Source: an uncultured Clostridia bacterium (GTDB lineage: Bacteria; Bacillota; Clostridia; Oscillospirales; Acutalibacteraceae). From it: a DNA stretch of 45,000 nt. Of the stretch, positions 11,511 through 39,165 are shown in pieces (positions within the stretch are counted from its first letter, which is position 1; the number at the start of each line of letters is the position of its first letter). The DNA is taken from contig CAMCPL010000011.1 in assembly GCA_945876745.1 (NCBI GenBank), positions 1 to 45,000 of the forward strand, read 5' to 3'. The notes under the pieces were generated by a model that worked only from the letters and a program-made list of their open reading frames with translations, was not told the origin of the DNA and did not search any database. Made by a program: the position numbers and the translations under genes.

Positions 11511-13754
11511 ATGGCAATATTCAAATGCAAGATGTGCGGGGGCGCATTAGAAATCAATCATAACGAAACTGTTGCAGTGTGTGAATATTGTGGCACTAAA
11601 CAAACTTTGCCAAAAAGCAATGATGAGGTTATTTCAAATCTTTTTAATCGAGCAAACAATCTTCGTCTTAAATGCGAATTCGACAAGGCTGAGCAGGTTT
11701 ACGAGAAAATTCTTGAGATTGATAATACTGAATCAGAAGCTCATTGGGGTATAGTGCTTTGTAAATATGGTATTGAGTATGTAGAGGACCCTAAAACTTA
11801 TACCCGTATTCCTACATGCCATCGCACCTCATACGATTCAATTCTTGCTGATTAGGCTTATCTTTCAGCTATTGCAAATGCCGATGGCTATCAAAAAGTT
11901 CTTTACGAAGAAGAAGCGAAGAAAATCAACGATATTCAGCGTGGCATACTCAGTATTGTAAAGAATGAAAAGCCATTTGATGTGTTTATTTGTTATAAAG
12001 AAACTGATGAAAGTGGTCAGCGTACAGTGGATAGTACAATAGCTAACGATATTTATCATCAGTTAACAAATGAGGGCTTTAAAGTCTTTTATGCAGCAAT
12101 CACTCTTGAAGATAAGCTTGGTGAGGCTTACGAGCCATACATATTTGCTGCATTAAATAGTGCAAAGGTTATGCTTGTAATTGGCACGAAACCTGAATAT
12201 TTTGAAGCAGTATGGGTTAAAAATGAGTGGTCAAGATTCTTAAAGCTTATCAAAACCGACCGTTCAAAGTTGTTGATTCCTTGCTATCGCAATATGGATG
12301 CCTATGACTTGCCCGAAGAATTCTCACACTTGCAGTCGCAAGATATGAGCAAAATCGGCTTTATCAATGATATTGAGCATGGCATTAAAAAAGTCCTTGC
12401 AAAAGATACTTCAAAAGCAGAGCCGGTAGTTGTCAGTCAAGCAATATCAACTGCAAATGTTGCTCCGCTTCTTAAAAGAGCATATTTATTCCTTGAAGAT
12501 GGCGATTTTGAAAGTGCCAATGAATACTGTGAAAAAGTACTCGATGTAGACCCCGAAAATGCAAGAGCATATCTTGGTAAAACTCTTGTTGCGTTAAAAC
12601 TTAGCAAGGTTGAAAATCTTGCTAAAAGCGGAAAAGAATATTTTACTAACAAAGATTATAAAAAAGCAGTAAGATTTGCTGATGAAAAACTAAAAGAAGA
12701 ACTTGAACAGTATCTCACAGCTTGGAAAGATAATCAGTACGATGTTGCAGTTAAGATTATGAATCGTGCAGAAACAGCTTCGGAATACAGAGTTGCGGCT
12801 GAAAGTTTTAGCGTGCTTTATGGATACAAAGATTCACAGCAACAAAGAACAACATGTATTGAACAAGCAGAGCGTTTAGATAATCTTACAACTGAACATC
12901 AAAATCTTTTGCTTAAAATTAATGATATAAAGAAACAACTTTCTGATTTGAAGATTAAACGACAGAAAATTGAAAGTAATTATCTTAATAAAAAGAATAC
13001 ACTGGATGAATTAAGCAAAAAGAGAAGTGCGGCGAAACCACTCTCAATTTTAACGGTTGCTAACTTGTTATTGCCAATCTTATTTTTTACAATTATTATT
13101 AATTCAGGCGAGGAAATGTCTGGTTTCACCGCAATTGTAGCATTGCAGATAATGATGGCTGTGCTTGTAGTTTATATTGCATTTATAATTATTTGGATTA
13201 AAGTCAGTAAGAATGTATTGAATCGCAAGAAAAATGATATTGTATCTAATACTGTTATAGCAATGATTTTTCCACTTGTAGCGTGTATACTTGCACTTGT
13301 CGATTGTGGTAAAATCAATAAATTGCGACGCAATTCAAAAGATATTGAAAAACAAGTTCAAGATTATCTTGTTGACTTAAGACATTGTCAAGATGAAATA
13401 GCGGTGGCAGAGGATGAAATCCAGCAATTAACAACGCAAGCAAATCAATTAGCAGATAACAATGGAATTTCTCAGGTTTCAACAGACTCAACATCAGGGG
13501 AGGACATTAAACAATTATTGAGTCAAGTATGTGATGATGAGTATTTTGAAGCGGCAATAGATATTGTTGTTGAAATGCAGTCTGCATCAACTACATTGTT
13601 ACAAAGGAAACTTAAACTTGGATATGCACGTTCAGCCAGAATTATAGAGGCTCTTGAACGTATAGGCTTTGTTGGACCTTTTGTTGGCTCCACTATACCA
13701 AGACAAGTCTTAATTTCCAAAGAACAATGGGAACAAATGAAAAATAATTATTGA
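11511..13754 (+). pseudogene. TIR paralog 1: zinc ribbon-TIR-TPR-membrane-FtsK-gamma protein, interrupted by in-frame TAG
   Basis: One frame runs from ATG 11511 (ribosome site AGTAGGAG) to TGA 13754, 747 codons, broken only by TAG at 11853-11855. Domains: zinc ribbon with CKMC and CEYC (residues 6-29), a helical linker, TIR from DVFICYKETD (from residue 157) with candidate catalytic Glu239 in WVKNEW, and a TPR-like segment (APLLKRAYLFLEDGDF). A coiled coil, three membrane segments (about 13040-13310), a second coiled coil and a C-terminal FtsK-gamma-like winged helix follow (STTLLQRKLKLGYARSARII). The TAG replaces an acidic residue found in both paralogs (ADED/DDDD). No good restart lies after it; GTG 11982 has no ribosome site. 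It is either a recent nonsense mutant or read through. Confidence 0.8.
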
Positions 13755-13780
13755 AAAACAACCTAAGGGGGATATACATT

Positions 13781-14917
13781 ATGTCAAAAATAGCAGATAT
13801 CATTAAATACGAGGGTGACAATACCACTTTTATATGGAAACACCCATGTGAAGATTTCAATACTCTTACTCAGTTGATTGTTCACGAATCACAGGAAGCA
13901 ATTTTCTTTATGAACGGTCAGGCACTTGATTTGTTCGGTCCTGGTCGTCATACACTTGAAACTCAAAATATTCCACTTATCGGTAAGGCACTTAATATGC
14001 CTACCGGTGGAAAAACACCATTTCATTGTGAAGTTTATTTCATAAATAAAACTGAGCAAATGTCAATTAAATGGGGTACCGATTCAAAAGTTCAGTATAT
14101 GGAGCCTACATATAACTTCCCACTTTCGATTGGTGCAAGTGGTGAAATGAGTCTCCGTGCAGAAGATTCAAGAAAACTTCTTTTAAAGCTTGTTGGCACT
14201 GAAAACTATCTTACGCAAGCAAAACTTACATCTTTTTTCCGTGCATTCCTTATGACTCGCGTTAAGTCATATATTGCACAGGTGATGAGAACAAACGCAA
14301 TCAGCATTTTCGAAATTGACGAAAATCTCGCAATGTTCTCAAATGCAATTAAAAATCTTCTTGTAAATGATTTTGCAGAATACGGTGTTGCACTTGAACA
14401 GTTCTTTGTAACAAATATCGTTAAGCCTGATGGCGACTCGATGTACGAAAAGTTTAAGTCACTTCACTTCCGTCAGTATGCAGATATTGCTGAAGCAAAA
14501 CTTCGTCAGCAGACAGATTTGATTTATGCTGAAACCGAAGCACAGAAAGTTATTATCGATTCCAAAGCACAGGCAACAAAGCGTGCACAGGAAGGCTATA
14601 CATACAGCCAAGAGCGTGGCTTTGATGTGGCGGAAAAAGTGGCTCAGAACGAAGCAGTTGGCGAATTTACAAATATGGGCGTTGGATTTGGAACAATGGC
14701 AGGCGTTGGCGGAGCAGTTGGTGGTATGGTCGGCGGTATGATGAACGATGCAATCAATACTGCACAAGCACCTGCAACAACACCAGCACAACCAACTGAT
14801 GATATGGCATCATTCAAAGCAAAAATCGAAAAGCTTACAATGATGAAAGAAGCAGGAATGTTAAGTGAAGAAGAATTTAACAACCTTAAAGCACAGCTTC
14901 TCACAAGCATTTTATAA
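13781..14917 (+). CDS. SPFH-domain protein with C-terminal SHOCT (YdjI-like)
   Basis: A 378-residue protein of the virion-core-like SPFH group that includes Bacillus subtilis YdjI. Residues ~30-240 form the SPFH (band-7) fold, starting with ESQEAIFFMNGQALDLFGPG. A charged helix with AEAKLRQQTDLIYAETEAQK follows, then a glycine/methionine-rich stretch (GVGFGTMAGVGGAVGG) and a SHOCT motif at the C-terminus (KIEKLTMMKEAGMLSEEEF). SPFH proteins form membrane-bound scaffolds. I chose ATG 13781 because AAGGGGG precedes it; the earlier ATG (13751) lies inside the TIR gene's end. It follows TIR paralog 1 by 26 bases and precedes the next gene by 11, so it is in the operon. It may organise the membrane platform for the TIR proteins (inference). 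Confidence 0.85.
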   Translation: MSKIADIIKYEGDNTTFIWKHPCEDFNTLTQLIVHESQEAIFFMNGQALDLFGPGRHTLETQNIPLIGKALNMPTGGKTPFHCEVYFINKTEQMSIKWGTDSKVQYMEPTYNFPLSIGASGEMSLRAEDSRKLLLKLVGTENYLTQAKLTSFFRAFLMTRVKSYIAQVMRTNAISIFEIDENLAMFSNAIKNLLVNDFAEYGVALEQFFVTNIVKPDGDSMYEKFKSLHFRQYADIAEAKLRQQTDLIYAETEAQKVIIDSKAQATKRAQEGYTYSQERGFDVAEKVAQNEAVGEFTNMGVGFGTMAGVGGAVGGMVGGMMNDAINTAQAPATTPAQPTDDMASFKAKIEKLTMMKEAGMLSEEEFNNLKAQLLTSIL

Positions 14918-14928
14918 GGAGAATTATT

Positions 14929-15747
14929 ATGTCTATGATTCCAGCAAAATGCACTCAATGTGGTGCGAATATAAATGTTGACGATACCAAGGAAGCAGGT
15001 ATTTGTGAGAGTTGTGGCACTGCTTTCATAACTGAAAAAGCAATAAATAATTATGAGGTTACTAACAATATAAACGTTTCAAATGCAACAATAAATATTA
15101 ATGGTGCGGACATTGAAAACCTGCTAATTAGAGCGGAACAATATGAATCTCGCGGAGATTTTGATAGTGCAAGAGAGTACTATAATCGAATTTTGGATAT
15201 TGACGCCAATCACGAGATAGCTAAATCAAAATTTTTTGATTTGGGCAACCTTTATATTGGTAGTGTGAAAGTAACCAAAGAGCAGTTATCACAAATTGAA
15301 AATTTATTAAATAAAGGCGAAAAAATAACTGCTATTAAACTGGCAAGGGACTTTAGCGGTTTGGGACTAGCTGAAGCAAAAGCATTTATTGACAATTATA
15401 GTACTATAGACAAGAGTAAACCGCAAGACTATGCAAATCAATTAGGCTCTAATACTGTAAATAGCAAATCGTCTTCTGGAGGATGTTATGTAGCTACTTG
15501 CGTTTATGGTTCTTACGACTGTCCGCAAGTTTGGACGCTACGTCGTTTCCGTGATAATACTCTTTCTAAAACATTGTTTGGCAGAGCGTTTATTCATACA
15601 TATTATGCAATCAGTCCCACAATTGTAAAATGGTTTGGCAATATGAATTGGTTTAAGAAAATGTGGCAAGGTCAACTTGACCGAATAGTTAAAAACCTTA
15701 ATGAAAATGGTGTTGACAATACGCCATATCAAGATAAGAATTGGTGA
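14929..15747 (+). CDS. zinc ribbon-TPR-L7/L12-like-CFI-box protein
   Basis: A 272-residue mosaic. An N-terminal zinc ribbon (C8-x2-C11, then CESC near residue 27) is followed by a short TPR (ENLLIRAEQYESRGDFDSA). Next comes a segment like the ribosomal L7/L12 C-terminal domain (ITAIKLARDFSGLGLAEAKA). A cysteine-rich C-terminus follows, with GGCYVATCVYGSYDCPQVW and TLRRFRDNTLSKTLFGRAF, which matches the CFI-box/CTERM type domain. The function is unknown; the zinc ribbon resembles those of its TIR neighbours and of YdjG-type partners of YdjI. The ribosome site AAGGAG lies 7 bases before ATG 14929. It is in the TIR/SPFH operon. Confidence 0.78.
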   Translation: MSMIPAKCTQCGANINVDDTKEAGICESCGTAFITEKAINNYEVTNNINVSNATININGADIENLLIRAEQYESRGDFDSAREYYNRILDIDANHEIAKSKFFDLGNLYIGSVKVTKEQLSQIENLLNKGEKITAIKLARDFSGLGLAEAKAFIDNYSTIDKSKPQDYANQLGSNTVNSKSSSGGCYVATCVYGSYDCPQVWTLRRFRDNTLSKTLFGRAFIHTYYAISPTIVKWFGNMNWFKKMWQGQLDRIVKNLNENGVDNTPYQDKNW

Positions 15748-15767
15748 TTTTTGAAAGGAGAATTATT

Positions 15768-16844
15768 ATGAAAAACGGTAAAAATTTAGTTTTAATTATT
15801 ACAAGTATAATTTTAGTAGTTTTCATTGGTTTGTCATTCTTGATTTATGATAAATCTGACGCAGTAATTGTAAAAGGAACAACAGGTTCATATGCCGAAA
15901 TCTTTGCAAAGAATAATGAATTGGAATTTATTGCAATAGCAGATTCTGATAATCCAAATGTTGATATTCCTGTAAAAGATGAAGATGCAAAAGACGAAGA
16001 AAAAACAGAAGAAAAAGAAGAAGTTCCAACAGTTAAAGACAACGGTACATTCTCATATAACTATGTAGATGATAAGTCAGTTACTATTGTTGCTTACAAA
16101 GGTACTGATAGTCTTGTTGTTATACCTGATACAATTGATACTTTACCTGTTACAAAAGTTACATTTAATCCACTTGAATCAGGTGTTGAAGCAATTCAGT
16201 TTTCTGATAATGTAACAACTATCGAGGGCGAATATTCAACAGCACGCTATACAGCAGAATTTTTTGTAGCACTTGCAATTATGGTTATTGGCTATGCTTA
16301 TGCGGTTGTTGTAACTTTAATGGCGTTCAAAAAATCAGATTCTAATGAAAAAACTTTCTATGGAATCCCAGTTGTATATAATGGTTTTGCAACATTTGTA
16401 GTTCTTGCAATTGCGTCTGCAGTATTTATGATTTTGAATTTACCAATAGTTGCAATGGTGGTAGTTACTATTGTTATTCTTGCAATTTCTGCAATTGGTC
16501 TTGTTAAAACAACAGTTGCACGTAACGCAGTTGAGGCAACAGGCGAGAAGGTTAAACAGCAGACTGCATTTATCAGATTACTCACTGCAGATGCAGAGCA
16601 TCTTATGGCAACAGCAAAAACTGCTGAAATTAAGGCAGATGCTAAAAAAGTATATGAAGCAATCCGTTATTCAGACCCAATGAGTAATGATGCCCTTGCT
16701 GATGTTGAAACAAAGATTCAGTATCAGTTCAATGCTTTTACAAACGCAGTTAAGAACGAAGATGCAGAACTCGTGGCATCAATGTCAGTAGAACTTTTAG
16801 ACCTTATTGATGCAAGAAATAAGAAGTGCAAGGTTTTAAAATAA
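15768..16844 (+). CDS. membrane protein with BspA-like extracytoplasmic segment
   Basis: The 358-residue protein has an N-terminal membrane anchor (residues ~6-26) and an acidic linker rich in Glu and Lys. A short BspA/LRR_5-like stretch (GTDSLVVIPDTIDTLPVTKV) follows. Three further membrane segments lie at about residues 163-190, 210-232 and 234-255, then a soluble helical tail. I chose ATG 15768 because GAAAGGAG lies 8 bases upstream. It sits 20 bases after the zinc-ribbon gene and 21 before TIR paralog 2, so all are one operon. Its place next to a YdjI-like SPFH gene recalls YdjH, but I see no clear sequence match. Confidence 0.7.
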   Translation: MKNGKNLVLIITSIILVVFIGLSFLIYDKSDAVIVKGTTGSYAEIFAKNNELEFIAIADSDNPNVDIPVKDEDAKDEEKTEEKEEVPTVKDNGTFSYNYVDDKSVTIVAYKGTDSLVVIPDTIDTLPVTKVTFNPLESGVEAIQFSDNVTTIEGEYSTARYTAEFFVALAIMVIGYAYAVVVTLMAFKKSDSNEKTFYGIPVVYNGFATFVVLAIASAVFMILNLPIVAMVVVTIVILAISAIGLVKTTVARNAVEATGEKVKQQTAFIRLLTADAEHLMATAKTAEIKADAKKVYEAIRYSDPMSNDALADVETKIQYQFNAFTNAVKNEDAELVASMSVELLDLIDARNKKCKVLK

Positions 16845-16865
16845 TTACATGGAGGGTTGAGGAAA

Positions 16866-19766
16866 ATGGCAATATTTAAATGCAAAATGTGCGGTGGCGC
16901 ACTTGAAATTAACAACAATGAAACTGTTGCGGTGTGCGAATACTGCGGCACTAAACAGACCTTGCCTAAACTTGACGACGAGAAGAGAGTTCAGCTTTAC
17001 GATAGAGCCAATCATTTCCGTCGTGAAAATGAGTTTGACAAAGCAATGGGTATTTATGAAATGATACTCAGTGATGATAAAGAAGATTGTGAAAGCTATT
17101 GGGGAATAGTACTCTGCCGATATGGTATCGAGTATGTTGAAGACCCAAGAACTCATAAGAGAATTCCAACGGTTAATCGTGCGCAGTTCACATCGATTTT
17201 TGATGATGACGATTACAAAAATGCAATTAAATATGCTGATGGTTATCAAAAAGATGTCTATGAAGCAGAGGCAAGTGTAATAGATAAAATCCAGAAAGGG
17301 ATTCTTGAAATTTCAAATAAAGAAGAACCTTTTGATGTGTTTATCTGCTACAAAGAAACTGACTCTCATGGTAACAGAACACAAGATAGTGTTTATGCTC
17401 AAGATATTTACGCTGCACTCACAAAAGAGGGCTATAAAGTCTTTTTCTCAAGAATTACACTTGAAGATAAGTTGGGTTCTGCTTATGAGCCATACATATT
17501 TGCCGCACTTAACTCTGCAAAAGTAATGCTTGTTGTAGGCACTGAAAAAGATAACTTTAATGCAGTGTGGGTAAAGAATGAGTGGTCAAGATATATATCA
17601 CTTATTAAAGCTGGAAAAGATAAAACCCTCATTCCTGTTTATAAAGATATTAGCCCATACGATATGCCGGAAGAATTCCAATATCTCCAATCGCAAGATA
17701 TGGGTAAAATTGGCTTTATGCAGGATTTGATCCGTGGTATCAAAAAGATTGCACAGGCAGATGCTCCCAAGACAACCGTTGTCAAAGAAACGGTAATTAG
17801 CGGCGGAAACGCTAATACTGCACCTCTTTTGAAGCGAGCATTTATGTTCCTGGAAGATGGCGATTGGAACTCTGCCAACGAATACTGCGAAAAGGTTCTG
17901 GATATCGATCCTGAAAACGCTTCTGCTTATTTAGGTAAACTTTTGTCCGAATTAAAGGTAAGAAAACAGGAATCTTTAAAGGACTGCGCCGAGCCCTTTG
18001 ATACTAACAACAACTACCAAAAAGCCGTCCGCTTTGCTGACGAGAAGTTAAAGGTCGCACTTACGGGCTACATAGAGCATATCAATACCCGCAATGAAAA
18101 CGCCCGTCTTGATGGCGTTTACACCCGTGCAAAAAATGCAATGTCTGCGGCAAATACCGAGAGTGCTTATAAGGAAGCGGCTCACCTCTTTGAATCTATT
18201 CGTGAATATCAGGATTCTGCCGTTCTTGCACAGTCGTGCTACGAAAAAGCGGAGATAGCAAGAAAGGATACCATTCTCTCCGAAGGCAAATCTAAAATGA
18301 GCGGAGAAATTATATCCAATTACGAATCTGCCATAAAATTGTTTGAAACGATCTCCGGCTGGAAGGATTCCGCCGAGCAGATTTACGCTTGCCAAAAGAG
18401 AATCGAGGAAATCAAAGCCAAGGAAGACGCTGAACGTTTAAAGGAAGAAGCTGAACGTTTAGAAAAAGAACGCCAAGCGGAAATTGCACGCAAAGAGGCA
18501 GAACGCATTGCAAAACGCAATAAGAAAATTGCGATAATTACAACATCTATCGTTTGCGCCATTATTGCTTTTGTAATCCTTTTGAACACGGTAATCATTC
18601 CTAACGTCAAATACAACGATGCGATGGCACTGATGGATGCGGGAAAATATTCCGAGGCAATACTCGCTTTTGAAGCAATGGATGGTTACAAAGACAGTCT
18701 GACAAAAATAGACGAATGTAATTACAATAAGGCGGTTTTATTTTCTGTTGCAGGAAACTTAGATGAAGCGTATGAAAGCTTTGTTAGAGCAGGTAATTAC
18801 AAAGACTCATATGAGTTGTTGGCTCCTATCGCTTATTCTCGTGGCGTTAAGTTGCTTGATGAAGGCAAGATTCGTGAAGCTATGGGATGTTTCGTTAATG
18901 CACGAGGATATGAGAGTGCGGAAAATTATCTGATAAATTGGAATGCAAAAACTATTTCGGCTGGAGCAAACTCTATAGTTGGATTGAAATCAAATGGCAC
19001 AGTTGTTGCTGTGGTATCAGATGTTTTTGATGATGGACAAGGAAATGTATCTGGATGGACAGATATAGTAGCAATTTCTGCAGGGGATAGTCATACAGTC
19101 GGTCTGAAATCCGATGGTACAGTTGTTGCTGTTGGCGATAATTATAATGGTCAGTGTAATGTTGATAGTTGGACAGATATAGTAGCAATATCAGCAGGTA
19201 GAGCCCATACAGTTGGCTTAAAATCCGATGGCACAGTTGTTGCTGTGGGTGATAATCATTCTGGTGAATGTGATGTAAGCGATTGGACTGATATAGTAGC
19301 GATTTCAGCTTGTTCTGGTTATACAATTGGCTTAAAATCAAATGGCACAGTTGTTGCTACGGGACTTTCAGATGATAAAATATCCCATATTTCAAATTGG
19401 ACCGATATCATAGCAATTGACGGTGATTCGTTCGATGTTTTTGGCTTAAAATCAAATGGTACAGTTGTTAATATTCCGGGCGCCTACCATATCGATGCTT
19501 CCAAGTTGACAAATGTGGTTGCAATTAGTGCAGGTACGAAACACACGGTAGTCTTAAATTTTGATGGTACAGTTTTTGCCGATGGTACAAGTTATAGTGA
19601 TGAATGTAATGTTGATAGTTGGACAGATATTGTAGCAATATCAGCAGGTGATGAACACACAGTTGGCTTAAAATCCGATGGCACAGTTGTTGCTAAAGGG
19701 TTTGAGGTCGATAGTGTGTTTGATGTCACGGATTGGACTGACATCAAACAACCAACCAAATATTAA
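16866..19766 (+). CDS. TIR paralog 2: zinc ribbon-TIR-TPR-membrane-RCC1-like propeller protein
   Basis: A 966-residue protein. Zinc ribbon CKMC...CEYC at residues 6-29; TIR from DVFICYKETD (near residue 157) with candidate NADase Glu239; TPR and helical repeats (about 310-490); a charged coiled coil; one membrane segment (IAIITTSIVCAIIAFVILL, about 555-575); a second TPR pair with GYKDS motifs. The C-terminal part (about 695-965) has seven repeats of about 38 residues, each built on ISAG...GLKS(D/N)GTVVA...WTDIVA, the pattern of a seven-bladed RCC1-type propeller. ATG 16866 follows GGAGGG; a TTG at 16857 is less likely. From 17775 on its DNA matches paralog 3, while the N-terminal DNA resembles paralog 1, so the gene is a recombinant. 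A membrane-anchored TIR effector with a propeller sensor is my inference. Confidence 0.85.
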   Translation: MAIFKCKMCGGALEINNNETVAVCEYCGTKQTLPKLDDEKRVQLYDRANHFRRENEFDKAMGIYEMILSDDKEDCESYWGIVLCRYGIEYVEDPRTHKRIPTVNRAQFTSIFDDDDYKNAIKYADGYQKDVYEAEASVIDKIQKGILEISNKEEPFDVFICYKETDSHGNRTQDSVYAQDIYAALTKEGYKVFFSRITLEDKLGSAYEPYIFAALNSAKVMLVVGTEKDNFNAVWVKNEWSRYISLIKAGKDKTLIPVYKDISPYDMPEEFQYLQSQDMGKIGFMQDLIRGIKKIAQADAPKTTVVKETVISGGNANTAPLLKRAFMFLEDGDWNSANEYCEKVLDIDPENASAYLGKLLSELKVRKQESLKDCAEPFDTNNNYQKAVRFADEKLKVALTGYIEHINTRNENARLDGVYTRAKNAMSAANTESAYKEAAHLFESIREYQDSAVLAQSCYEKAEIARKDTILSEGKSKMSGEIISNYESAIKLFETISGWKDSAEQIYACQKRIEEIKAKEDAERLKEEAERLEKERQAEIARKEAERIAKRNKKIAIITTSIVCAIIAFVILLNTVIIPNVKYNDAMALMDAGKYSEAILAFEAMDGYKDSLTKIDECNYNKAVLFSVAGNLDEAYESFVRAGNYKDSYELLAPIAYSRGVKLLDEGKIREAMGCFVNARGYESAENYLINWNAKTISAGANSIVGLKSNGTVVAVVSDVFDDGQGNVSGWTDIVAISAGDSHTVGLKSDGTVVAVGDNYNGQCNVDSWTDIVAISAGRAHTVGLKSDGTVVAVGDNHSGECDVSDWTDIVAISACSGYTIGLKSNGTVVATGLSDDKISHISNWTDIIAIDGDSFDVFGLKSNGTVVNIPGAYHIDASKLTNVVAISAGTKHTVVLNFDGTVFADGTSYSDECNVDSWTDIVAISAGDEHTVGLKSDGTVVAKGFEVDSVFDVTDWTDIKQPTKY

Positions 19767-19867
19767 AACAAGTTTATAAGTAAAAGGTTAAATTATTTAT
19801 GTCACAAGATAATGGATATGAAATTTCTTCGTTATCCGAAAAAAATTCAATTTTCAGAGGTGATATT

Positions 19868-20068
19868 ATGTTTGGTTATACAACGAAATGGTCAGTCGAT
19901 ATGATTGAAGAATTGATAGATATTGGCCATTTTGAGAGAAAAAACAAAGGTGATGTCGTACAAGCAATTAATGACTTGGAAGTGCATTTTAAATACCATA
20001 ATGTTAAAAAACAAAGATACGAGTATTTAAAATCAAAATTAAAGGAAATATTAAATAGTAAGGTGTGA
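19868..20068 (+). CDS. small hypothetical protein
   Basis: This 66-residue protein has mostly charged helices (WSVDMIEELIDIGHF, then KQRYEYLKSKLKEIL). I recognise no family. ATG 19868 has AGAGGTG five bases upstream; an earlier in-frame ATG (19799) has a weaker site and would add 23 residues. It follows TIR paralog 2 by 101 bases on the same strand. Confidence 0.5.
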   Translation: MFGYTTKWSVDMIEELIDIGHFERKNKGDVVQAINDLEVHFKYHNVKKQRYEYLKSKLKEILNSKV

Positions 20069-20071
20069 AAA

Positions 20072-20561
20072 AATGACAATTGATAATATTATTAGTTTAG
20101 GTTCTGCTTTAATATCATTAATTGCATCAGTTTGTGCCGCAGTTGCTTTGCTTCAAACTAAAAAGTATAATAAAGAATCTCTTGAAAGACAAAGAAAAGA
20201 GGCTACTATTCACTCTTATTAATCATTACAAGAGCAAGTGTTGGACAAACTTGTGATTATTTACAGTACAAATCCCGGCAACGCAACGCAGGATCAAGTG
20301 TTCTTGCTTAGCATCACGGAAGCGAATACATATTTCAGCTCCGATAGTGCAAGACAGTGTAAGCCCACGAAGTATGCAGTTGCTAATGGAGTTTCGGAAA
20401 GCAACAGTAGCAACTGCCGGTGGTGGCTGCGGTCGCCCGGCTACTTTCAGAATCTTGCCGCCACTGTCAGCACTGGCGGCGATGTCCCTGAGGGCGGCAA
20501 CCGTGTCAGCATCGATTTCATTGCTGTCCGCCCCGCTTTGTGGATTGCATTTGATTCTTAA
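20072..20561 (+). pseudogene. small membrane-protein fragment joined to a promoterless DUF6273 3' end
   Basis: A short frame of about 50 codons encodes one membrane helix (SALISLIASVCAAVALLQ) and a charged tail, and ends at TAA (20220-20222). The same frame continues beyond the stop (SLQEQVLDKLVI) and at about 20262 runs straight into the last ~95 codons of a DUF6273 domain, identical to the end of TIR paralog 3. The join has no ribosome site. I read it as a truncated small membrane gene fused by recombination to a copied cassette. The DUF6273 part is unlikely to be translated from here. The exact start base of the small frame is uncertain. Confidence 0.6.
20262..20547 (+). repeat. 286-bp exact repeat, cassette copy A (DUF6273 3' end)
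   Basis: The sequence from TACAGTACAAATCC to CTTTGTGGATTG equals 23928-24213 base for base as far as I can compare. It encodes only the C-terminal part of the DUF6273 domain, including the putative variable region. It lacks the upstream TIR, TPR and membrane parts. Confidence 0.9.
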
Positions 20562-20621
20562 TTTTACTACAACTTGTGGCTTGAATACAACGAATATATT
20601 TAGAATTTAATAGGGATATAT

Positions 20622-21524
20622 ATGAAAAAATGTAATAGAACTTTATTTAATGAGTTTTTAGAAAAAGAGAATATAAAATATATTGAAAATCCATCAAAAA
20701 CTATGTGTAAATGCTTTGTTGAAAGTTTTGATGATATAAAAAAAGTATTAAGTGCGACTAATGATATTTTCGGTTGGAATGATGAAGCTGTTCGTTTCAG
20801 GGGACAATCTTATGATAGGTGGGACATTGAACCATCTATTGCAAGGGTTAAAGGGCTTATGAAATACGAAAAAAGTATGCTTTTAGAGTTGTCGCCTCCT
20901 AAAACAGAAGTGGATTTAGAGCGAATAATTAAAGCTCAACATTATGGTTTGCCAACAAGATTGATAGATGTTACAACTGATTGGAGAGTTGCATTATGGT
21001 TTGCTTGTCAATCCTTTAAAAAGAATAATGGCGAAGAACATAACGGAGAAATTCTTTTAATGAAATCGGTTGTGGAGGATGATAATATTATAAATTATGC
21101 TCTTTGGCAAATTGAAAACTATGATTTTGTGCAAAGAGAAACAAGTGAAAATAGTATTAGAAAGTATGAATCTGAGAAAGGTAAGACAACTGAGAATTTA
21201 GATATTAAAAGATACTTTATTCCTTGTGTAATCGACTTTTTTGGAAATGAAACTGATGATGCACGAGTAAAAAATCAAAAAGCTTGCGGTATATTATCAA
21301 TAATTAACACAAATCAAAGTAAACGCGGAGTATATTCTCTTTTTAGTCGTGTGTATAAGAAATATATGGTTTCTATAATAATACCGGGAGAATTAAAGAA
21401 ATATTTTCTTGACGAATTAGAAAAAGAAGGTATAAACCATAAATACATCTACCCTAATAGTTTCGAACACGAATGCAAATACATAAAAGAGAAATATATT
21501 AAAATGTTGAAAAATAATGAGTAA
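20622..21524 (+). CDS. FRG-domain protein
   Basis: The 300-residue protein carries the FRG domain: RFRGQSYDRWDIEPSIAR near residues 58-75 and AQHYGLPTRLIDVTTDWRVA near 105-125. The latter is the family's most conserved block (QHxGxPTRLLDxT). FRG proteins are often found in defence islands and their biochemical role is unknown. It is cytosolic, with no membrane segments. The ATG is preceded by TAGGGATATAT, a modest ribosome site. A short terminator follows. Very AT-rich codon use differs from the GC-richer DUF6273 cassette just upstream, which supports separate origins. Confidence 0.82.
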   Translation: MKKCNRTLFNEFLEKENIKYIENPSKTMCKCFVESFDDIKKVLSATNDIFGWNDEAVRFRGQSYDRWDIEPSIARVKGLMKYEKSMLLELSPPKTEVDLERIIKAQHYGLPTRLIDVTTDWRVALWFACQSFKKNNGEEHNGEILLMKSVVEDDNIINYALWQIENYDFVQRETSENSIRKYESEKGKTTENLDIKRYFIPCVIDFFGNETDDARVKNQKACGILSIINTNQSKRGVYSLFSRVYKKYMVSIIIPGELKKYFLDELEKEGINHKYIYPNSFEHECKYIKEKYIKMLKNNE

Positions 21525-21551
21525 AGTTACAATATCTATCATACTAATATT

Positions 21552-21574
21552 ACCAAATTGACGATTTGGTTTTT
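21552..21574 (+). terminator. short intrinsic terminator of the FRG gene
   Basis: ACCAAAT (21552-21558) pairs with ATTTGGT (21564-21570), followed by TTTT. A separate 9-bp inverted repeat, TTGCCTTTG/CAAAGGCAA, lies at 21585-21593 and 21636-21644. A fragmentary frame ending in a CPEC zinc-knuckle-like sequence runs from about 21655 to the TAA at 21781-21783. Confidence 0.65.
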
Positions 21575-21782
21575 GAATGTGGGATTGCCTTTGTCTGCAG
21601 GGTTTTTGATTTTTTTGTCCTTGTGTGAATAACATCAAAGGCAACCCGTATAACCTCCTTTCGAAGGAAAGACGAAAACGCCGCGGGTTCTCATACTTAC
21701 CGTGGCAGGCTGACGAAGATTCCACCGTGGTCTGTCCAGAGTGTAATTTTAAATTTAGAATTAGTTTCGGAGGTAACAGATA

Positions 21783-24227
21783 ACGGCACTCTTTAAATGT
21801 AAAATGTGCGGAGGCACAATCGAATTTGAGCAGGGAGCAACGGTCGGTGTTTGCGATTCCTGTGGAACGAAACAAACCCTGCCCCGTCTTGATGACGATA
21901 AAAAAGCAAATCTTTACGACAGAGCAAACCATTTCCGTCGGAACAACGATTTCGACGAGGCAATGGGTATTTACGAGCAGATTCTGAATGAGGACAACAC
22001 CGATGCGGAGGCCTATTGGTCGCTTGTTCTTTGCCGTTACGGTATTGAATATGTGGAGGATCCTTCTTCTCATAAGCGTATTCCTACTGTAAACAGAGCG
22101 CAGTTCACCTCGATTTTTGCCGATGAGGATTACAAGTCTGCCTTGCAGTACGCCGACGGCTATCAGAAAACCATTTATGAAGACGAAGCCAAAGCCATTG
22201 ACGAAATCCAGAAGGGTATCCTTGCGATTTCGCAAAAAGAAGAGCCTTTTGATGTGTTTATTTGCTATAAGGAAACCGATGCGAGCGGCAGAAGAACGCA
22301 GGACAGCGTTCTTGCCAACGAACTATACCACCAACTGACGCAGGAGGGCTTCAAGGTCTTTTTCTCGCGCATTACTTTGGAGGACAAGTTGGGCACCGCC
22401 TATGAACCCTACATATTTGCCGCGCTGAACTCCTCCAAAGTGATGGTCGTGCTCGGCACAAAGCCCGAATATTTCAATGCCGTATGGGTAAAGAACGAAT
22501 GGAGTCGCTATCTCGCCCTCATCAAGAACGGCGCAAAGAAAATGCTCATCCCTGCCTACCGTGATATGGATCCATATGATTTGCCGGATGAATTTTCCCA
22601 CCTGCAAGCACAGGATATGTCCAAACTCGGCTTTATGCAGGATTTGATTCGTGGTATCAAAAAGATTGCTGAGGTAGACACGCCAAAAACCACCGTTGTC
22701 AAAGAAACGGTAATTAGCGGCGGAAACGCTAATACTGCACCTCTTTTGAAGCGAGCATTTATGTTCCTGGAAGATGGCGATTGGAACTCTGCCAACGAAT
22801 ACTGCGAAAAGGTTCTGGATATCGATCCTGAAAACGCTTCTGCTTATTTAGGTAAACTTTTGTCCGAATTAAAGGTAAGAAAACAGGAATCTTTAAAGGA
22901 CTGCGCCGAGCCCTTTGATACTAACAACAACTACCAAAAAGCCGTCCGCTTTGCTGACGAGAAGTTAAAGGTCGCACTTACGGGCTACATAGAGCATATC
23001 AATACCCGCAATGAAAACGCCCGTCTTGATGGCGTTTACACCCGTGCAAAAAATGCAATGTCTGCGGCAAATACCGAGAGTGCTTATAAGGAAGCGGCAG
23101 CACTCTTTGAATCTATTAGTGAATATCAGGATTCTGCCGTTCTTGCACAGTCATGCTACGAAAAAGCGGAGATAGCAAGAAAGGATACAATTCTCTCCGA
23201 AGGAAAATCTAAAATGAGCGGAGAGATTATATCCAATTACGAATCTGCCATAAAATTGTTTGAAACGATCTCCGGTTGGAAGGATGCCGACGAAAAGATT
23301 TATGCCTGCCAAAAGAAGATTGAAGAAATAAAGGCGGATCGGTTAGAAAAAGAACGCAAAGCCGAAATTGCACGCAAAGAGGCAGAACGCATTGCAAAGC
23401 GAAACAAGAAAATTGCAATTATTACAACACCTATTGTTTGTGCAATTATCGCTTTTATTATCGTTTTGAATACTGTTATTATTCCCAACGGCAAATACAA
23501 CGATGCTATTGCATTGATGGATGCTGGAAATATTGTTGAGGCGTATGAGGCACTAGTAGCGTTAGATGGATATAAGGACAGTGCAGACAAAGCCAACTCT
23601 ATTTATGATAAGTACAAGGTTGAAAAACTGAAAGTTGCCAAAGTGGGAGACTATGTGTTTTTCGGCGCATACGAACAGGATAACAACACTTCAAACGGCA
23701 AAGAAGACGTTGAATGGCTTGTCCTTGAAGTGAAAGATGGTAAAGCACTTGTTATCAGCAAATACGCTCTTGACTGCAAGCCATACGATACAAGCGGTAC
23801 GGGTGTTACTTGGGAAACTTGCACACTTCGCAGGTGGCTGAACAACGATTTTATCAATGCGGCATTTTCTGCCGAGGAAAAGGCCATAATTCCAACTGTT
23901 ACGGTATCGGCAGATAAAAATCCCGAATACAGTACAAATCCCGGCAACGCAACGCAGGATCAAGTGTTCTTGCTTAGCATCACGGAAGCGAATACATATT
24001 TCAGCTCCGATAGTGCAAGACAGTGTAAGCCCACGAAGTATGCAGTTGCTAATGGAGTTTCGGAAAGCAACAGTAGCAACTGCCGGTGGTGGCTGCGGTC
24101 GCCCGGCTACTTTCAGAATCTTGCCGCCACTGTCAGCACTGGCGGCGATGTCCCTGAGGGCGGCAACCGTGTCAGCATCGATTTCATTGCTGTCCGCCCC
24201 GCTTTGTGGATTGATCTGAACTCTTAA
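21783..24227 (+). CDS. TIR paralog 3: zinc ribbon-TIR-TPR-membrane-DUF6273 protein, apparent ACG start
   Basis: Reading from ACG 21783 gives 814 residues. The zinc ribbon CKMC...CDSC, TIR (DVFICYKETD) and candidate NADase Glu239 fall at the same numbers as in paralogs 1 and 2, which supports this start. GGAGG lies 9 bases upstream; paralogs begin ATG GCA ATA TTT, here ACG GCA CTC TTT. ATG 21804 would remove the first zinc Cys. TPR/helical repeats, a coiled coil and one membrane segment (IAIITTPIVCAIIAFIIVL) follow. The C-terminus (from about residue 618) is a DUF6273 domain, a C-type-lectin-like fold, with WWLRSPG and a final VRPALWI. The last ~45 codons look like a DGR variable region. Predicted role: membrane-anchored TIR effector with an exposed recognition domain (inference). 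Confidence 0.82.
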   Translation, partial: TALFKCKMCGGTIEFEQGATVGVCDSCGTKQTLPRLDDDKKANLYDRANHFRRNNDFDEAMGIYEQILNEDNTDAEAYWSLVLCRYGIEYVEDPSSHKRIPTVNRAQFTSIFADEDYKSALQYADGYQKTIYEDEAKAIDEIQKGILAISQKEEPFDVFICYKETDASGRRTQDSVLANELYHQLTQEGFKVFFSRITLEDKLGTAYEPYIFAALNSSKVMVVLGTKPEYFNAVWVKNEWSRYLALIKNGAKKMLIPAYRDMDPYDLPDEFSHLQAQDMSKLGFMQDLIRGIKKIAEVDTPKTTVVKETVISGGNANTAPLLKRAFMFLEDGDWNSANEYCEKVLDIDPENASAYLGKLLSELKVRKQESLKDCAEPFDTNNNYQKAVRFADEKLKVALTGYIEHINTRNENARLDGVYTRAKNAMSAANTESAYKEAAALFESISEYQDSAVLAQSCYEKAEIARKDTILSEGKSKMSGEIISNYESAIKLFETISGWKDADEKIYACQKKIEEIKADRLEKERKAEIARKEAERIAKRNKKIAIITTPIVCAIIAFIIVLNTVIIPNGKYNDAIALMDAGNIVEAYEALVALDGYKDSADKANSIYDKYKVEKLKVAKVGDYVFFGAYEQDNNTSNGKEDVEWLVLEVKDGKALVISKYALDCKPYDTSGTGVTWETCTLRRWLNNDFINAAFSAEEKAIIPTVTVSADKNPEYSTNPGNATQDQVFLLSITEANTYFSSDSARQCKPTKYAVANGVSESNSSNCRWWLRSPGYFQNLAATVSTGGDVPEGGNRVSIDFIAVRPALWIDLNS
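23928..24213 (+). repeat. 286-bp exact repeat, cassette copy B (in TIR paralog 3)
   Basis: This is the in-gene copy of the block found at 20262-20547, offset 3666 bases. Identity starts at TACAGT and stops at GGATTG, six codons before the TIR gene's stop. The sharp limits point to a recent duplication or gene conversion. Confidence 0.9.
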
Positions 24228-24228
24228 A

Positions 24229-24468
24229 TCTTCAAATCTCAAATCATCCACTCAGCGCCGTAGGCGCAATCCGCGTGCGAACAAATATAAGCGTAAATTT
24301 CGCTGTTTTCAGAAAGCATACGCCGAAGGTAGAACAGATCTTGATGAAATAAAACAGGTACTTTCCGGCAATCGCGCTCATTTTTCGTTTGGCAATACCT
24401 ATAAATTGTAGAAGAAAATGCTGGGAGTGTTCGTGTTGAGGAGGGTACAACAAGATGAGTCAAAATAA
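24229..24468 (+). pseudogene. reverse transcriptase C-terminal remnant (DGR-type, tentative)
   Basis: A frame of about 80 codons begins just after the TIR gene with a basic stretch (TQRRRRNPRANKYKRKFR), continues FQKAYAEGRTDLDEIKQVLS and GNTYKL, has TAG at 24409-24411, then KKMLGVFVLRR to TAA 24468. Basic helix, acidic helix and a final S..H..(G)NTY.LRKK pattern are how DGR reverse transcriptases end, in the thumb region. The fingers and palm with the catalytic YxDD are absent, so the bulk of the gene is deleted. Position directly behind a DUF6273 variable-type gene is the normal place for a DGR reverse transcriptase. The call rests on a short match made by eye. Confidence 0.5.
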
Positions 24469-27936: not shown

Positions 27937-28833
27937 TCAATTCCTTCTAAAATTAACTTTGGCCGATGATTTATCTGTAATGCTTGGCAATAAATTATCA
28001 TCGCTGATAAAAAGCACTTCTGAGGTTTTTCCACTATTAGCTACACCATAGACCAAGTCAAAATACCAACATGTGTATTTGTCATAAATGTTTTTAATCT
28101 CATCCGTGTTATCATAAGTTACCATCCATGGACACGGTAATTGATCAATCAATTCAAATATTTCCTTATGGTCTTTTTCTATAAAAAAGTTTTTATAAAG
28201 CTGTTTACCCTTGTGGAAGTACGGAGGATCAAAATATACAAACGCTTGATCTATATATTTTGGCAGATATGACGCTAAAAAACTTCTAACATCATGATTA
28301 TAAACATGGATTCTATTCTTGTATTTGGCAATTTTTCTTATTCTTTTTGATAAATCGACTTTATTGAATCGGACATCAATTTTATAATTTCCTTCTTGTT
28401 CAAATCCTCCTATGGGACCGGCGCTTAATATTCCAGATCGATTTACTCGATTTAAAAAGAATGTTGCAAACCCCAATTCCAAAGAATACTTCCTGTTTTG
28501 GTTTGTATAGATTTCTTTCTGTCTGTGCCACTCATCAACAGTGATTTCTGTATTTTCCAGCAATTCCAAAAAACCATTAGTTTGCGTCAATATTGCTTTC
28601 CACATTGAATAAATGGCTTTATCATAGTCATTGATTACAATCTCATCCACATCATTATTGAAAAGTAATGAAAGTGCGATCCCTGCTCCTCCAGCAAACG
28701 GTTCAATATAAATTCTTCGTTCTTCCCCAGCTTTTTTGATAACAGAAGCAACAAAAGGATATAACCTTCCTTTTCCACCCGGATATCTCAGAGGGGAATA
28801 GTTTTTAAGTTTTTCTTCTTTTTTCTTAGGCAT
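27937..28833 (-). CDS. Dam-type DNA adenine N6-methyltransferase
   Basis: A 298-residue methyltransferase of the D12/alpha class. Motif X RYPGGKG at 16-22, the SAM-binding motif I EPFAGGAG at 44-51, and catalytic motif IV DPPY at 202-205 are all present, in the order of Dam/MboI-type enzymes. It adds a methyl group to adenine N6 in a short target that cannot be read from sequence. It is the last gene of the defence operon, 40 bases after the helicase. It may mark self DNA for the upstream system, or be an accompanying orphan. Confidence 0.87.
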   Translation of the reverse strand: MPKKKEEKLKNYSPLRYPGGKGRLYPFVASVIKKAGEERRIYIEPFAGGAGIALSLLFNNDVDEIVINDYDKAIYSMWKAILTQTNGFLELLENTEITVDEWHRQKEIYTNQNRKYSLELGFATFFLNRVNRSGILSAGPIGGFEQEGNYKIDVRFNKVDLSKRIRKIAKYKNRIHVYNHDVRSFLASYLPKYIDQAFVYFDPPYFHKGKQLYKNFFIEKDHKEIFELIDQLPCPWMVTYDNTDEIKNIYDKYTCWYFDLVYGVANSGKTSEVLFISDDNLLPSITDKSSAKVNFRRN

Positions 28834-28873
28834 GGTATCCTCCCAAAAATGTATCCAGGTTAATGCGAAAAAC

Positions 28874-31800
28874 TCACCTATTTCTTATTTCCATAAAGGA
28901 GTTTGGCAACCAATCTGATAAGTCATATGGATTAAAGAACATTCGATTATTCTGTGGCGCTGGTTTCTTTAACAAAGCGGGAATAACCTCAAAGTTCGGT
29001 AATGCCAGATCCTTTGTATCATCGCTTTCTTCGATTAAGCGTAACAACGGACGCAAATAAAGAGATTGTTCCTCTTCTGAATACTCAACTGGATAACTGT
29101 TTTGTTCTGCGTAATCGAGCAATTGTAAACCCAAATGGCGGTCAAACAACGAGTGGTTGCGTTGATTGTAAAAATTGTCAAGACAATTTTTACAGGAGCG
29201 AGCGCAGTCACATTCAGTCAGAATCTCACGAGCTCGAATAAGCACTTTATCCAAAATGGAACCAATCATAGAAGAATATCCAGCACCACTTGAGAGATTA
29301 TCATAAAAGAACATTTCAATATGAGAGTTACCATCATCACTCATGCGCGGACGCCAACCACCGTTTATTTCGTTATAATCAATTCCAAGTTCAAGTGAAA
29401 CCGCTTTTTTTATTGTCTCATGCAAAGTTGTGACTGCAGCTCTTAATATGGATTTTTCTTTTTGATTATGGGTGCCTACAAGTCTATTGGAATCATATGT
29501 TATATCAAGCATAAACATATCGGTCATAAACTCGTAGCCTAAATAAACATTGGTTTCAACTGTACCTTCATGTCTGCAAAGAAGTCTGTCATGATATGGC
29601 TGTGAGAATGCAAAGTTCCCATTATTTTGGGTATCGGCAACCTCTGCACCACCGCATTTTTTACAAATATTAAAGCCGTTTTTCTTCTTTCCCATATTGA
29701 CGGTTAGGACGTTTTTGTCGGACAGATCGATATACTTTATATTGCTCTGTTTGAATTGGTTTAATCTCTCCGAGCCACTGGGAACATAAGAATAGTACGG
29801 TGCTTCAGTATATGTAAACTCTTCATCCTCATCTTCATGTCGAACAGGATTGCCTTTTACCGGTGCAAAGCCCCAAGGTCTCAGCATTTTTCTCTTTTCA
29901 ACGCGAGCTCCGCAGTAAGGGCATTCCCCATTGGCTGCATCTCGAGCTTTATTGCCGAACCAGTTACACTCGGTGCATACGAAAATGTCACTATAATAGT
30001 CTTTGCTGCTGAAATAGTATTCAGCTTGATTTCTTTCAAAGCCCCTGGGTCTTGGATTCGCATATATACCGCCGCTTCGATAAATCTTTTTGTCAATGGT
30101 AACAAATCTACCGGGTGCATACTCACTTAAAGCAACGGAGATATCTCTTTCAGGTGAATACTCGATTTCGTGAACGCCATTTCTCGCATTTTGGGAATCG
30201 TTTTCAACAAAGAAACGTACAACATTTTTTGGGAAAGAATATGACGGGATAAAGCCTTCGCTGTAAAACACATCGAAAGCTGATGTTTCAGTATTATCCG
30301 ATTGATATTCGTTCCTCTTGCCTTCTGCTAAAACGCTTTCTTTGATTTTAGTAAAAAGTCTGATGGTTTCCTCTGAAGATTCGCCGAAAGATCCTGCATA
30401 TTCGATAAATGTCGAGCCATAATCCTCACAAAACTCAACAATTCCAATATCCATTATGCTATCAAATTTTATTTTCATCTTAGGAGTAGACATAAATCCG
30501 TTCAGAATCATCATATTCATATGTCTTTGACGAATTTTTGGATTATCTCTGTCAATCCATGGTTTTCTCGGTTCGCCGGAAATCATTTCGTCAGGATGTG
30601 AAAAATAATGACCGTCATGAACGCCGCCTGACGCATATGTAACAATAGTAGAAATGCCCGCATTTTTACGACCGGCACGTCCTGCACGCTGTTGATAGTT
30701 TTCTCTCATCGGAGGAATGTTTCGTAACCCAACAGCAGTCAATGAGCCAATATCAATACCAACCTCCATTGTTGTGGTGCAGCTCAAAACATCAATAGAG
30801 TCTTCTCCATGTTCTCCAGCATTGATATCTTGAAATCGCATTTCATATTTTTCAGTTCTACTCCAAGTATCACTCTTAGTTTCTTTGTGTGATAATTGAG
30901 CGGTGTGCTCTTCGGTATCAATTGTGTGAATCGTGTCAATTTTCTTGATAGCATTAAGAACAGGAATACGCCAAAAATCGAATCTTGATAAGTCCTCGTG
31001 ACCAATAGCCGTAATAGCGTCTGATTCGAAGCATGCACCACACCAATTGCCGATTTTAAATGGGGATAGTTTTCCGCATTTTTGGCAACGATACCAAACG
31101 AAGTCTTCACCTGTAAGCATTATTTTTACTGCAGAAAGCTTTAAATAATATTTGTTCTTGGATGACGATGCAAAGAATACATCTCTGATTTTTGATATCA
31201 AGATACTCATTGATTCATCTGTGAGTCCAAGTAAATCTTTTGCACGACCTACAAAGTGCTTGTCAATTGATTTATCAAAATCGTATCCTAACCCTAAACT
31301 GTCATCTCCAGCTTTGCTTCTACCAGGCAAGTCTTTTCTAATATCGTCCGGTATGGCTTCTCCCAAAGCCGCTTTGTCATCCATGACATCCCAAAACAGT
31401 AAAACGAGCAATTGGAATAATGCATCCGAATCAATTTCTATGTTGTGGTCAAATCTTAAATCATCAAGCAATTCATTTTGAAGCAGGTCTTCTACTGGTG
31501 CAAGAAAACCAAGCCCAATATCTTTGAAAGAACGAGGGCTCTCTGTGAAAAACGTCAGTAATTGTTCATAGTACTCTTCGGGTAAAACAGAGTATCTAGA
31601 TGTAAGGTCCTTATAGTTTAATGTTCTTCTCTGGTTCCGTTCCGCCCTCTTTTTTATGCCATCGAATTTTTTGAGATCATCCTGAAATTTCACTTTGCTA
31701 TTGCCGCTGAAGAATGATAGGCGATTCTGCAAACAAACATCAAGAAATGCTGGATACAATTCTTGTAATGAATGCTCTTTTCCATCTGCTTCAAGCAATA

Positions 31801-34084: not shown

Positions 34085-34086
34085 AA

Positions 34087-38089: not shown

Positions 38090-38153
38090 ATTCTACTCCG
38101 GATTTTCTTAGTAATACAAATGGAAACCGTATAAGGTGGATGAATGAGTATAA

Positions 38154-39161: not shown

Positions 39162-39165
39162 CTCG

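What the first reader, a model, noticed from the sequence alone, without database searches (positions are those of the whole stretch)
11511..24227. Array of three TIR proteins sharing one membrane-anchored front end but carrying different C-terminal modules
Three paralogs have the same zinc ribbon, TIR domain (candidate NADase Glu at residue 239 in each), TPR and membrane part. They end in an FtsK-gamma winged helix, a seven-repeat RCC1-like propeller, or a DUF6273 C-type-lectin-like domain. This looks like one effector chassis with exchangeable sensors. Seen: domain motifs and repeats. Known: TIR NADases and FGE/lectin-type sensors are used in bacterial conflict systems. Inferred: that this is a defence or surveillance system.
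Basis: partly seen in the sequence, partly recalled or inferred. Interest (0 to 1): 0.87.

Follow-up and report, generated by a model that had tools for sequence, protein, structure and literature searches.

The report
Membrane TIR proteins with swappable sensors
Gut and rumen Clostridia carry a large family of immune-type (TIR) proteins, mostly predicted to be membrane-bound, that keep the same front half but swap the probable sensing half, and the commonest sensing half is, in at least two genomes, the target of a natural mutation-generating retroelement.

Summary
Three TIR paralogs exist, but A has an in-frame TAG and another membrane part, and C lacks an ATG at the conserved start. The front end is a widespread chassis: 32 of 300 family genomes, own included. 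Of 121 complete copies, 120 keep the candidate catalytic Glu. Of 117 tails, 55 are DUF6273, 13 RCC1, 5 BspA-LRR, 4 Flg_new; tail class is near random on the front-end tree. Single-pass copies are predicted TIR-inside, tail-outside (82 of 85). An SPFH and a multi-TM gene recur beside them. The DUF6273 tail is a target of a diversity-generating retroelement (DGR): in L107, TIR gene, Avd-like gene, template and RT lie side by side and all 21 template/variable-region mismatches are at template adenines; a second genome gives 16 of 17. The window holds the fossil, an RT remnant at 24256-24459 right behind paralog C. Best reading: Toll-like membrane TIR receptors with exchangeable, partly hypermutable sensors. 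NADase activity, outside location and defence role are inferred; no structure could be predicted.

The parts
11511..13754 (+). Paralog A: zinc ribbon, TPR, TIR, TPR, three hydrophobic segments, FtsK_gamma tail; interrupted by an in-frame TAG at 11853-11855
13781..14917 (+). SPFH protein (Band_7_1), recurrent neighbour of the family
   Evidence: Band_7_1 E 9.7e-38; cluster found in 42 of the 64 loci with a complete copy
14929..15747 (+). Zinc ribbon/TPR/L12-like protein with CFI-box C-terminus
   Evidence: CFI_box_CTERM E 1.4e-21
15768..16844 (+). Multi-TM protein M, no named family, recurrent neighbour
   Evidence: cluster in 39 of the 64 loci
16866..19766 (+). Paralog B: zinc ribbon, TPR, TIR, stalk, one membrane helix (18528-18599), RCC1 tail; open throughout
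17766..18366 (+). Stalk tract of B nearly identical to C (93-100% in 60-nt steps), between a diverged TIR part and unrelated tails
20262..20561 (+). Lone DUF6273 end, a copy of the end of paralog C (identical for the first 286 nt)
20622..21524 (+). FRG-domain gene (PADLOC candidate PDC-S15) inside the array; link to the system not shown
21786..24227 (+). Paralog C: zinc ribbon, TPR, TIR, stalk, one membrane helix (23412-23483), DUF6273 tail (23736-24215); no ATG at the conserved start
24087..24203 (+). DGR-type variable region of paralog C (62% G+C against 40% for the window)
24256..24459 (+). Remnant of a DGR reverse transcriptase (matches L107 RT residues 281-348, 68% identity, one in-frame TAG)

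Best explanation
A family of membrane-anchored TIR receptors. A cytoplasmic front (zinc ribbon, TPR, TIR with conserved Glu) is tied by a TPR stalk and usually one membrane helix to a C-terminal sensor, which is exchanged by recombination in the stalk. In single-pass members the sensor faces outward. Ligand binding by the sensor (DUF6273 lectin-like, RCC1, LRR and others) would cluster the TIR domains, perhaps on a flotillin-like platform made by the neighbouring SPFH and multi-TM proteins, and switch on NAD+ cleavage, ending in arrest, death or an ADPR-type signal. The DUF6273 sensor is, or was, rewritten by a diversity-generating retroelement, so that new specificities arise on one chassis. 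In the window's genome the retroelement is reduced to a remnant and the variable region is frozen. Shown by computation: shared chassis, different tails, conserved Glu, DGR targeting in two genomes, DGR remnant in the window, recurrent neighbours. Predicted: topology. Inferred: ligand, clustering, NADase activity, platform, defence.
For: Chassis and tails. Stalk recombination: B and C are 52-85% identical (DNA, 60-nt steps) over the TIR part, 95-100% at 17766-18126, and not meaningfully alignable behind the TM. Topology: 85 single-TM copies, 82 N-in, 0 N-out, 3 ties; surface-type tails in 7 of 8 behind an odd number of TMs, cytosolic-type tails in 0 of 12. DUF6273 occurs in exported proteins: a secreted IgA protease (PDB 9qa6; PMC12402451, passage) and a signal-peptide-like + DUF6273 + Big_3 protein (L148). 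Neighbours: SPFH in 42 and protein M in 39 of 64 loci with a complete copy, all 43 and 40 ORFs on the strand of the nearest TIR gene. DGR: L107 TIR gene, Avd-like gene, template and RT; 21 of 21 mismatches at template adenines, second genome 16 of 17; RT fragments in three more genomes, the window's among them. Defence setting.
Against: Cysteine is hardly lower behind the TM (1.60%) than before it (1.86%), while exported-like proteins of these loci have 1.19% and no-TM ORFs 1.92%: weak evidence against an outside tail. TM calls rest on a hydropathy threshold. 6 of 55 DUF6273 copies have no TM. Similar TPR-like YKDS repeats stand on both sides of the TM. Only 2 of 27 tested genomes hold a matching full-length DGR RT, so most DUF6273 tails seen here are not shown to be under a working DGR. 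Two of the window's three paralogs look damaged. 22 of 64 loci show no SPFH gene within 6 kb, partly because contigs end. No enzymatic or phage test exists and no structure could be predicted.
Confidence: 0.5

Rival explanations
1. Envelope-stress or host-surface sensing, not defence: SPFH, zinc-ribbon and multi-TM proteins form a membrane-integrity module (a likeness to Bacillus YdjGHI/PspA modules is recalled, from no call), and the TIR part is a scaffold or a slow signalling enzyme. The variable sensor would bind glycans, mucus or other bacteria.
For: SPFH and protein M recur with the TIR genes; tails are of adhesion and wall-binding kinds; cellular DGR targets are mostly membrane-anchored binding proteins (PMC8144416, section read).
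Against: Array sits beside Druantia- and AbiE-type genes and holds an FRG gene; Glu kept in 120 of 121 copies suggests enzymatic use.
Confidence: 0.22
2. Intracellular abortive-infection sensor anchored to the membrane: the C-terminal domain lies inside and binds phage proteins made in the cell, as Thoeris TIR proteins sense phage capsids (PMC12578639, abstract start seen).
For: Some members have no TM (6 of 55 DUF6273, 2 of 10 RCC1-only copies); cysteine content of the tails; cytosolic-type tails exist; a DGR in G285 targets a YobI-ATPase-DUF6273 protein.
Against: Charge pattern puts single-pass tails outside in 82 of 85.
Confidence: 0.18
3. The variability arises by ordinary selection or gene conversion and the DGR in two genomes is a coincidence of prophage insertion.
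For: No intact DGR in most tested genomes; two identical 286-nt tails in the window show plain copying.
Against: Adenine-specific mismatches with the template in two genomes; codon positions one and two, not three, differ between close relatives; RT remnants directly behind DUF6273 TIR genes in the window and L099.
Confidence: 0.04

Closest known systems
DGR-diversified antigen sensors of multicellular bacteria (PMC10907252; PMC7159879)
   Same: CLec- or FGS-type variable domain rewritten by a DGR, in conflict-type proteins some of which carry TIR effectors (passages read)
   Different: In the passages read those go with STAND, MoxR-vWA or other NTPase modules in multicellular bacteria. Here no NTPase domain was matched in the TIR proteins scanned, a membrane helix lies between TIR and sensor, the sensor family is DUF6273, the hosts are mostly gut and rumen Clostridia, and SPFH and multi-TM genes recur beside them
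DUF6273 DGR targets of Faecalibacterium prophages and tentaclins (PMC11792537; PMC10743442)
   Same: DUF6273 with a C-type-lectin-like fold; in the prophages the variable regions map to the C-terminus of DUF6273 (passages read)
   Different: Those are phage proteins; here the domain is the tail of TIR proteins in cellular contigs
Animal Toll-like receptors
   Same: Predicted single membrane pass, TIR inside, ligand domain (LRR in some members) outside; among solved structures the TIR part matches only a TLR15/TLR2 chain at E <= 0.01 (7ylf, E 1.8e-4)
   Different: Order of parts reversed, zinc ribbon and TPR parts present, sensor exchangeable. A likeness of plan; common descent is not shown
Thoeris ThsB / ThcB4 TIR proteins
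   Same: Weak similarity of the TIR part (NCBIfam ThcB4 E 9.7e-8 at 31.2 bits; PADLOC ThsB E 8.1e-4)
   Different: Far under ThcB4's cut-off of 220 bits; the recurrent neighbours are SPFH and multi-TM genes

Membership tests
Diversity-generating retroelement (L107 locus and genome G801) | Variable and template regions that differ almost only at template adenines | tested here: met
   21 of 21 and 16 of 17 mismatches over 117 nt each
Diversity-generating retroelement (L107 locus and genome G801) | DGR-type RT ([ILV]GxxxSQ motif, recalled) beside the template | tested here: met
   RVT_1 E 4.8e-20 for the L107 RT; LPLGNQTSQ read in both RTs; the G801 RT is 73% identical to that of L107
Diversity-generating retroelement (L107 locus and genome G801) | Avd accessory protein | tested here: inconclusive
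   L107: DivGenRetAVD E 1.3e-13 (51.2 bits, cut-off 80) and bAvd E 8.9e-9 (36.2 bits, cut-off 40). G801: partial Avd match in L116 near the contig end
Diversity-generating retroelement (window) | Intact RT and template in the genome | tested here: not met
   Only an RT remnant; the single RVT_1 match reads to me as a group II intron type; no third copy of the VR end with up to 3 mismatches
TIR domain superfamily | TIR match above the curated cut-off, conserved Glu | tested here: met
   TIR_2 in all three paralogs; Glu in 120 of 121 complete copies
TIR NADase | NAD+ cleavage that depends on the Glu | not testable with these tools
   Needs biochemistry
Thoeris | TIR protein scoring over the curated Thoeris model cut-off | tested here: not met
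   ThcB4 31.2 bits in paralog C, 14.8 in B, against a cut-off of 220
Thoeris | ThsA-type partner effector beside it | not tested
   No search for ThsA was run; the two recurrent partners found are SPFH and protein M
Toll-like receptor (plan, not descent) | Outside sensor, single membrane pass, inside TIR | tested here: inconclusive
   Positive-inside pattern in 82 of 85 single-TM copies; cysteine content speaks weakly against an outside tail

The most novel reading that the evidence does not exclude
A bacterial counterpart of Toll-like receptors with its own repertoire generator: outward-facing lectin-like sensors on membrane TIR proteins, diversified by a DGR beside the receptor gene, kept in arrays with other sensors, and spread by tail exchange, retrohoming and later decay of the retroelement. 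Frozen variable regions would then be a heritable record of past selection.
Probability: 0.35. Interest if true: 0.95.

Novelty: new variant of a known kind. Interest (0 to 1): 0.86.

Why it matters
If right, gut bacteria combine the receptor plan of animal innate immunity (sensor, membrane pass, TIR) with directed hypermutation of the sensor, in a compact gene set that can be moved to a laboratory host. It makes two open questions testable together: what bacterial TIR proteins recognise, and why cells, not only phages, keep DGRs. It also gives DUF6273, a domain of unknown function, a concrete role to test.

Tried and rejected
DGR in the window's own genome: searched for RVT_1 (one RT on contig C9, group II intron type by my reading), for further copies of the VR end and for an adenine-tolerant template in the window and fetched loci. 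None was found. The idea came back through the codon-position pattern and the L107 locus. In 15 family genomes with the chassis, 4 have an RVT_1 match; for three of them (G174, G060, G017) no template for the local VR was found within the RT locus, about 3.6 kb; the fourth, G222, was not tested.

The upstream control was wrongly scaled (450 nt divided by 150) and included misaligned pairs; only the corrected version is used, and its six pairs are not independent of each other. One search compared 135 nt, including bases beyond the end of homology; trims to 117 nt.

Rows dropped: of 158 ORFs with a front-end match, 33 partial or open-ended and 4 duplicates were left out, leaving 121; 4 of the 121 with tails under 40 residues were not scanned. 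Paralog A of the window is not among the 121, being split by its stop. In one search only the first 25 of 55 families are listed, so FtsK_gamma elsewhere is neither shown nor excluded.

Tail classes for searches come from regular expressions and a home-made DUF6273 profile; 36 of 121 stayed 'other'. The surface-type and cytosolic-type classes were chosen by me after seeing the tails, so that p-value is descriptive.

Cysteine depletion as a test of outside location did not support it clearly. Phage and plasmid collections gave no relative of the front end. Viral contigs gave one (L209). A viral-contig search with the L107 RT gave six relatives at 29-32% identity, so no close viral source of this DGR was found. 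Protein M gave no convincing family.

Structure prediction could not be run: the machine was busy at each try. The TcaA paper search was not followed up.
Full report
What is in the window. The own genome has three copies of the front end: A 11511-13754, B 16866-19766 and C 21786-24227. Zinc-ribbon cysteines and TPR matches are seen in all three, and TIR_2 is above Pfam's cut-off in all three; the ends differ: FtsK_gamma, RCC1 repeats, DUF6273. A is interrupted by an in-frame TAG and has three hydrophobic segments where B and C have one. C has no ATG at the conserved start. Between A and B lie an SPFH protein, a zinc ribbon/TPR/L12/CFI-box protein and a multi-TM protein M; between B and C lie a lone DUF6273 end and an FRG gene.

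The chassis is real and common. In the window's taxonomic family 32 of 300 genomes carry it, own included (E <= 1e-20; a few matches are weak and partial). In a phylum-wide draw it is 2 of 398, own included (E <= 1e-30). From these and the earlier loci I extracted 121 distinct complete proteins. 119 match [WF][VI]xNE[WF]; one more has WTKNEW; one lacks the Glu: 120 of 121. Among solved structures the front-end profile matches, for its TIR part, only a Toll-like receptor chain (7ylf, E 1.8e-4), with the Glu aligned to a Glu. This fits NADase activity but does not prove it.

The tails are exchanged. Of 117 tails scanned, 55 match DUF6273, 13 RCC1_2, 5 LRR_5, 4 Flg_new, 3 ribosomal L12, 3 Lipocalin_3, 2 MORN and 1 peptidase M23, among 55 families. 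On a FastTree of 120 front ends the five tail labels need 48 changes (shuffled mean 55.8, minimum 45); the four named labels on 83 tips need 24 (mean 26.7, minimum 22); DUF6273 against the rest needs 32 (mean 39.9, minimum 30). Tail type follows front-end descent only slightly. Of 98 loci with a complete copy 16 have two or more, and 10 of these mix tail classes. In the window, B and C are 52-85% identical in DNA over the TIR part, 95-100% at 17766-18126, and not meaningfully alignable behind the membrane helix, which points to recombination in the stalk.

Topology. Of 121 proteins, 85 have a single hydrophobic segment behind the TIR; by the positive-inside rule 82 are N-inside, none N-outside, 3 are ties. 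Tails of kinds usually outside (LRR_5, Flg_new, M23) stand behind an odd number of segments in 7 of 8; tails of kinds usually inside (zinc ribbon, L12, CFI-box, MORN) in 0 of 12 (classes chosen by me). DUF6273 is found in exported proteins (PDB 9qa6; PMC12402451, passage read; L148). Against this, cysteine is hardly lower behind the segment (1.60%) than before it (1.86%); exported-like proteins of these loci average 1.19% (18 proteins) and no-TM ORFs 1.92% (206, spurious ones not removed).

Neighbours. I gave 80 loci (window plus 79) to the neighbour analysis; 64 show a complete copy. Among 607 ORFs within 6 kb, two non-TIR clusters stand out: the SPFH protein (42 loci, 43 ORFs) and protein M (39 loci, 40 ORFs), all on the strand of the nearest TIR gene; the next non-TIR cluster is in 6 loci. 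A mixed third cluster (17 loci) holds TIR pieces and the window's CFI-box gene. Protein M has no Pfam match over a cut-off.

The DUF6273 sensor is a DGR target. Between close relatives the scaffold codons of the end of DUF6273 agree to the third base while other codons differ at positions one and two; over 18 aligned regions 20 of 44 codons are of the variable kind. For window C against L088, differences by codon position are 14/13/3 in the variable region and 13/10/44 in the 450 nt upstream (p 2e-7); six close pairs sum to 82/82/39 against 137/130/392. Mutated AAC/AAT codons of a template would give this. L107 (CAMFQI010000115.1, uncultured Eubacterium MAG) holds within 5 kb the TIR-TM-DUF6273 gene, an Avd-like gene, the template and an RT with LGNQTSQ; 21 of 21 mismatches over 117 nt are at template adenines. 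Genome G801 (L116, isolate RUI072) has the variable region on one contig and template plus RT on another; 16 of 17 mismatches are at adenines. Of 27 genomes searched with the L107 RT, 6 have a match: these two full-length; fragments in G798 (L099), G809 (L145) and the window's genome; and less similar RTs in G806. In the window the fragment is 24256-24459, 68% identical to RT residues 281-348 (E 2e-20), 28 nt behind paralog C. So the window shows a DGR target whose retroelement has been lost.

Other DGRs in the family. 19 of 398 genomes have an RT like that of L107 at E <= 1e-30. I fetched regions of 12 of these 19: none of the 12 regions holds the TIR front end, and 6 of 12 show an adenine-specific repeat pair by my scan. 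In G285 the target is a YobI-ATPase with a DUF6273 tail, so this kind of sensor is also used on another chassis.

Place among known things. DGR-diversified sensors, some with TIR domains, are described for multicellular bacteria (PMC10907252, PMC7159879; passages read); the first has no occurrence of Firmicutes or Clostridia in its main text. DUF6273 is a DGR target in Faecalibacterium prophages and tentaclins (PMC11792537, PMC10743442; passages read). Cellular DGR targets are mostly membrane-anchored (PMC8144416; section 9 read); TIR and DUF6273 do not occur in its main text as whole words. PMC10053308, on DGRs in prokaryotic immunity, has no occurrence of TIR. No paper in the held library has both 'TIR domain' and 'DUF6273'; the listings of searches showed me none whose title or abstract start describes membrane TIR receptors with exchangeable tails or an SPFH partner. 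Listings were capped and the library lacks most subscription papers, so this is not proof of novelty. I rate it a new variant of a known kind: the DGR-diversified sensor is known; the membrane TIR chassis with swappable tails, its neighbours and its clostridial spread appear new.

How sure. Exchangeable tails on one chassis: about 0.95. DGR origin of the DUF6273 variability: about 0.95. TIR inside and sensor outside: about 0.7. NADase effector in defence: about 0.55. All parts together: 0.5.

Noticed in passing
27937-39771: Druantia type I-like genes (DruE1, DruD1, DruB1 models), a D12 methyltransferase like PD-Lambda-5_B, and an AbiEi/AbiEii pair on the minus strand: a defence island beside the TIR array.
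   Followed up: partly
20622-21524: FRG-domain gene inside the array, matching PADLOC candidate PDC-S15.
   Followed up: no
19799-20221: Two small ORFs (89 aa, and a shorter membrane-like one by my reading) directly before the lone DUF6273 end; the 89-aa one has no Pfam match over a cut-off.
   Followed up: no
L217:8866-11499: YobI-like P-loop NTPase with a DUF6273 tail as DGR target in genome G285: the same sensor type on another chassis.
   Followed up: partly
L209:1-10460: Viral contig IMGVR_UViG_3300031555_010668 with lysin-like and recombinase-like genes (my reading) followed by SPFH, protein M, a small gene and a TIR-DUF6273 gene; a prophage edge or a phage-borne copy.
   Followed up: partly
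L170:4086-4838: Viral contig IMGVR_UViG_3300005201_000124 encodes a protein ending in a DUF6273-like variable-region scaffold, found by an exact 21-base match to the window's scaffold; no family scan was made.
   Followed up: no
L060:4706-6424: TIR protein whose tail carries L12-like and CFI-box modules, as in the separate gene 14929-15747 of the window: modules move between the chassis and neighbouring genes.
   Followed up: no
G000:C9:19254-19871 (L073): The genome's one RVT_1 match; it reads to me as a group II intron type, with the C-terminal part in another frame.
   Followed up: no
L083: RT followed by an ORF that may be a nucleoside deoxyribosyltransferase-like effector, possibly a retron, in genome G017 (reading from recall).
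   Followed up: no
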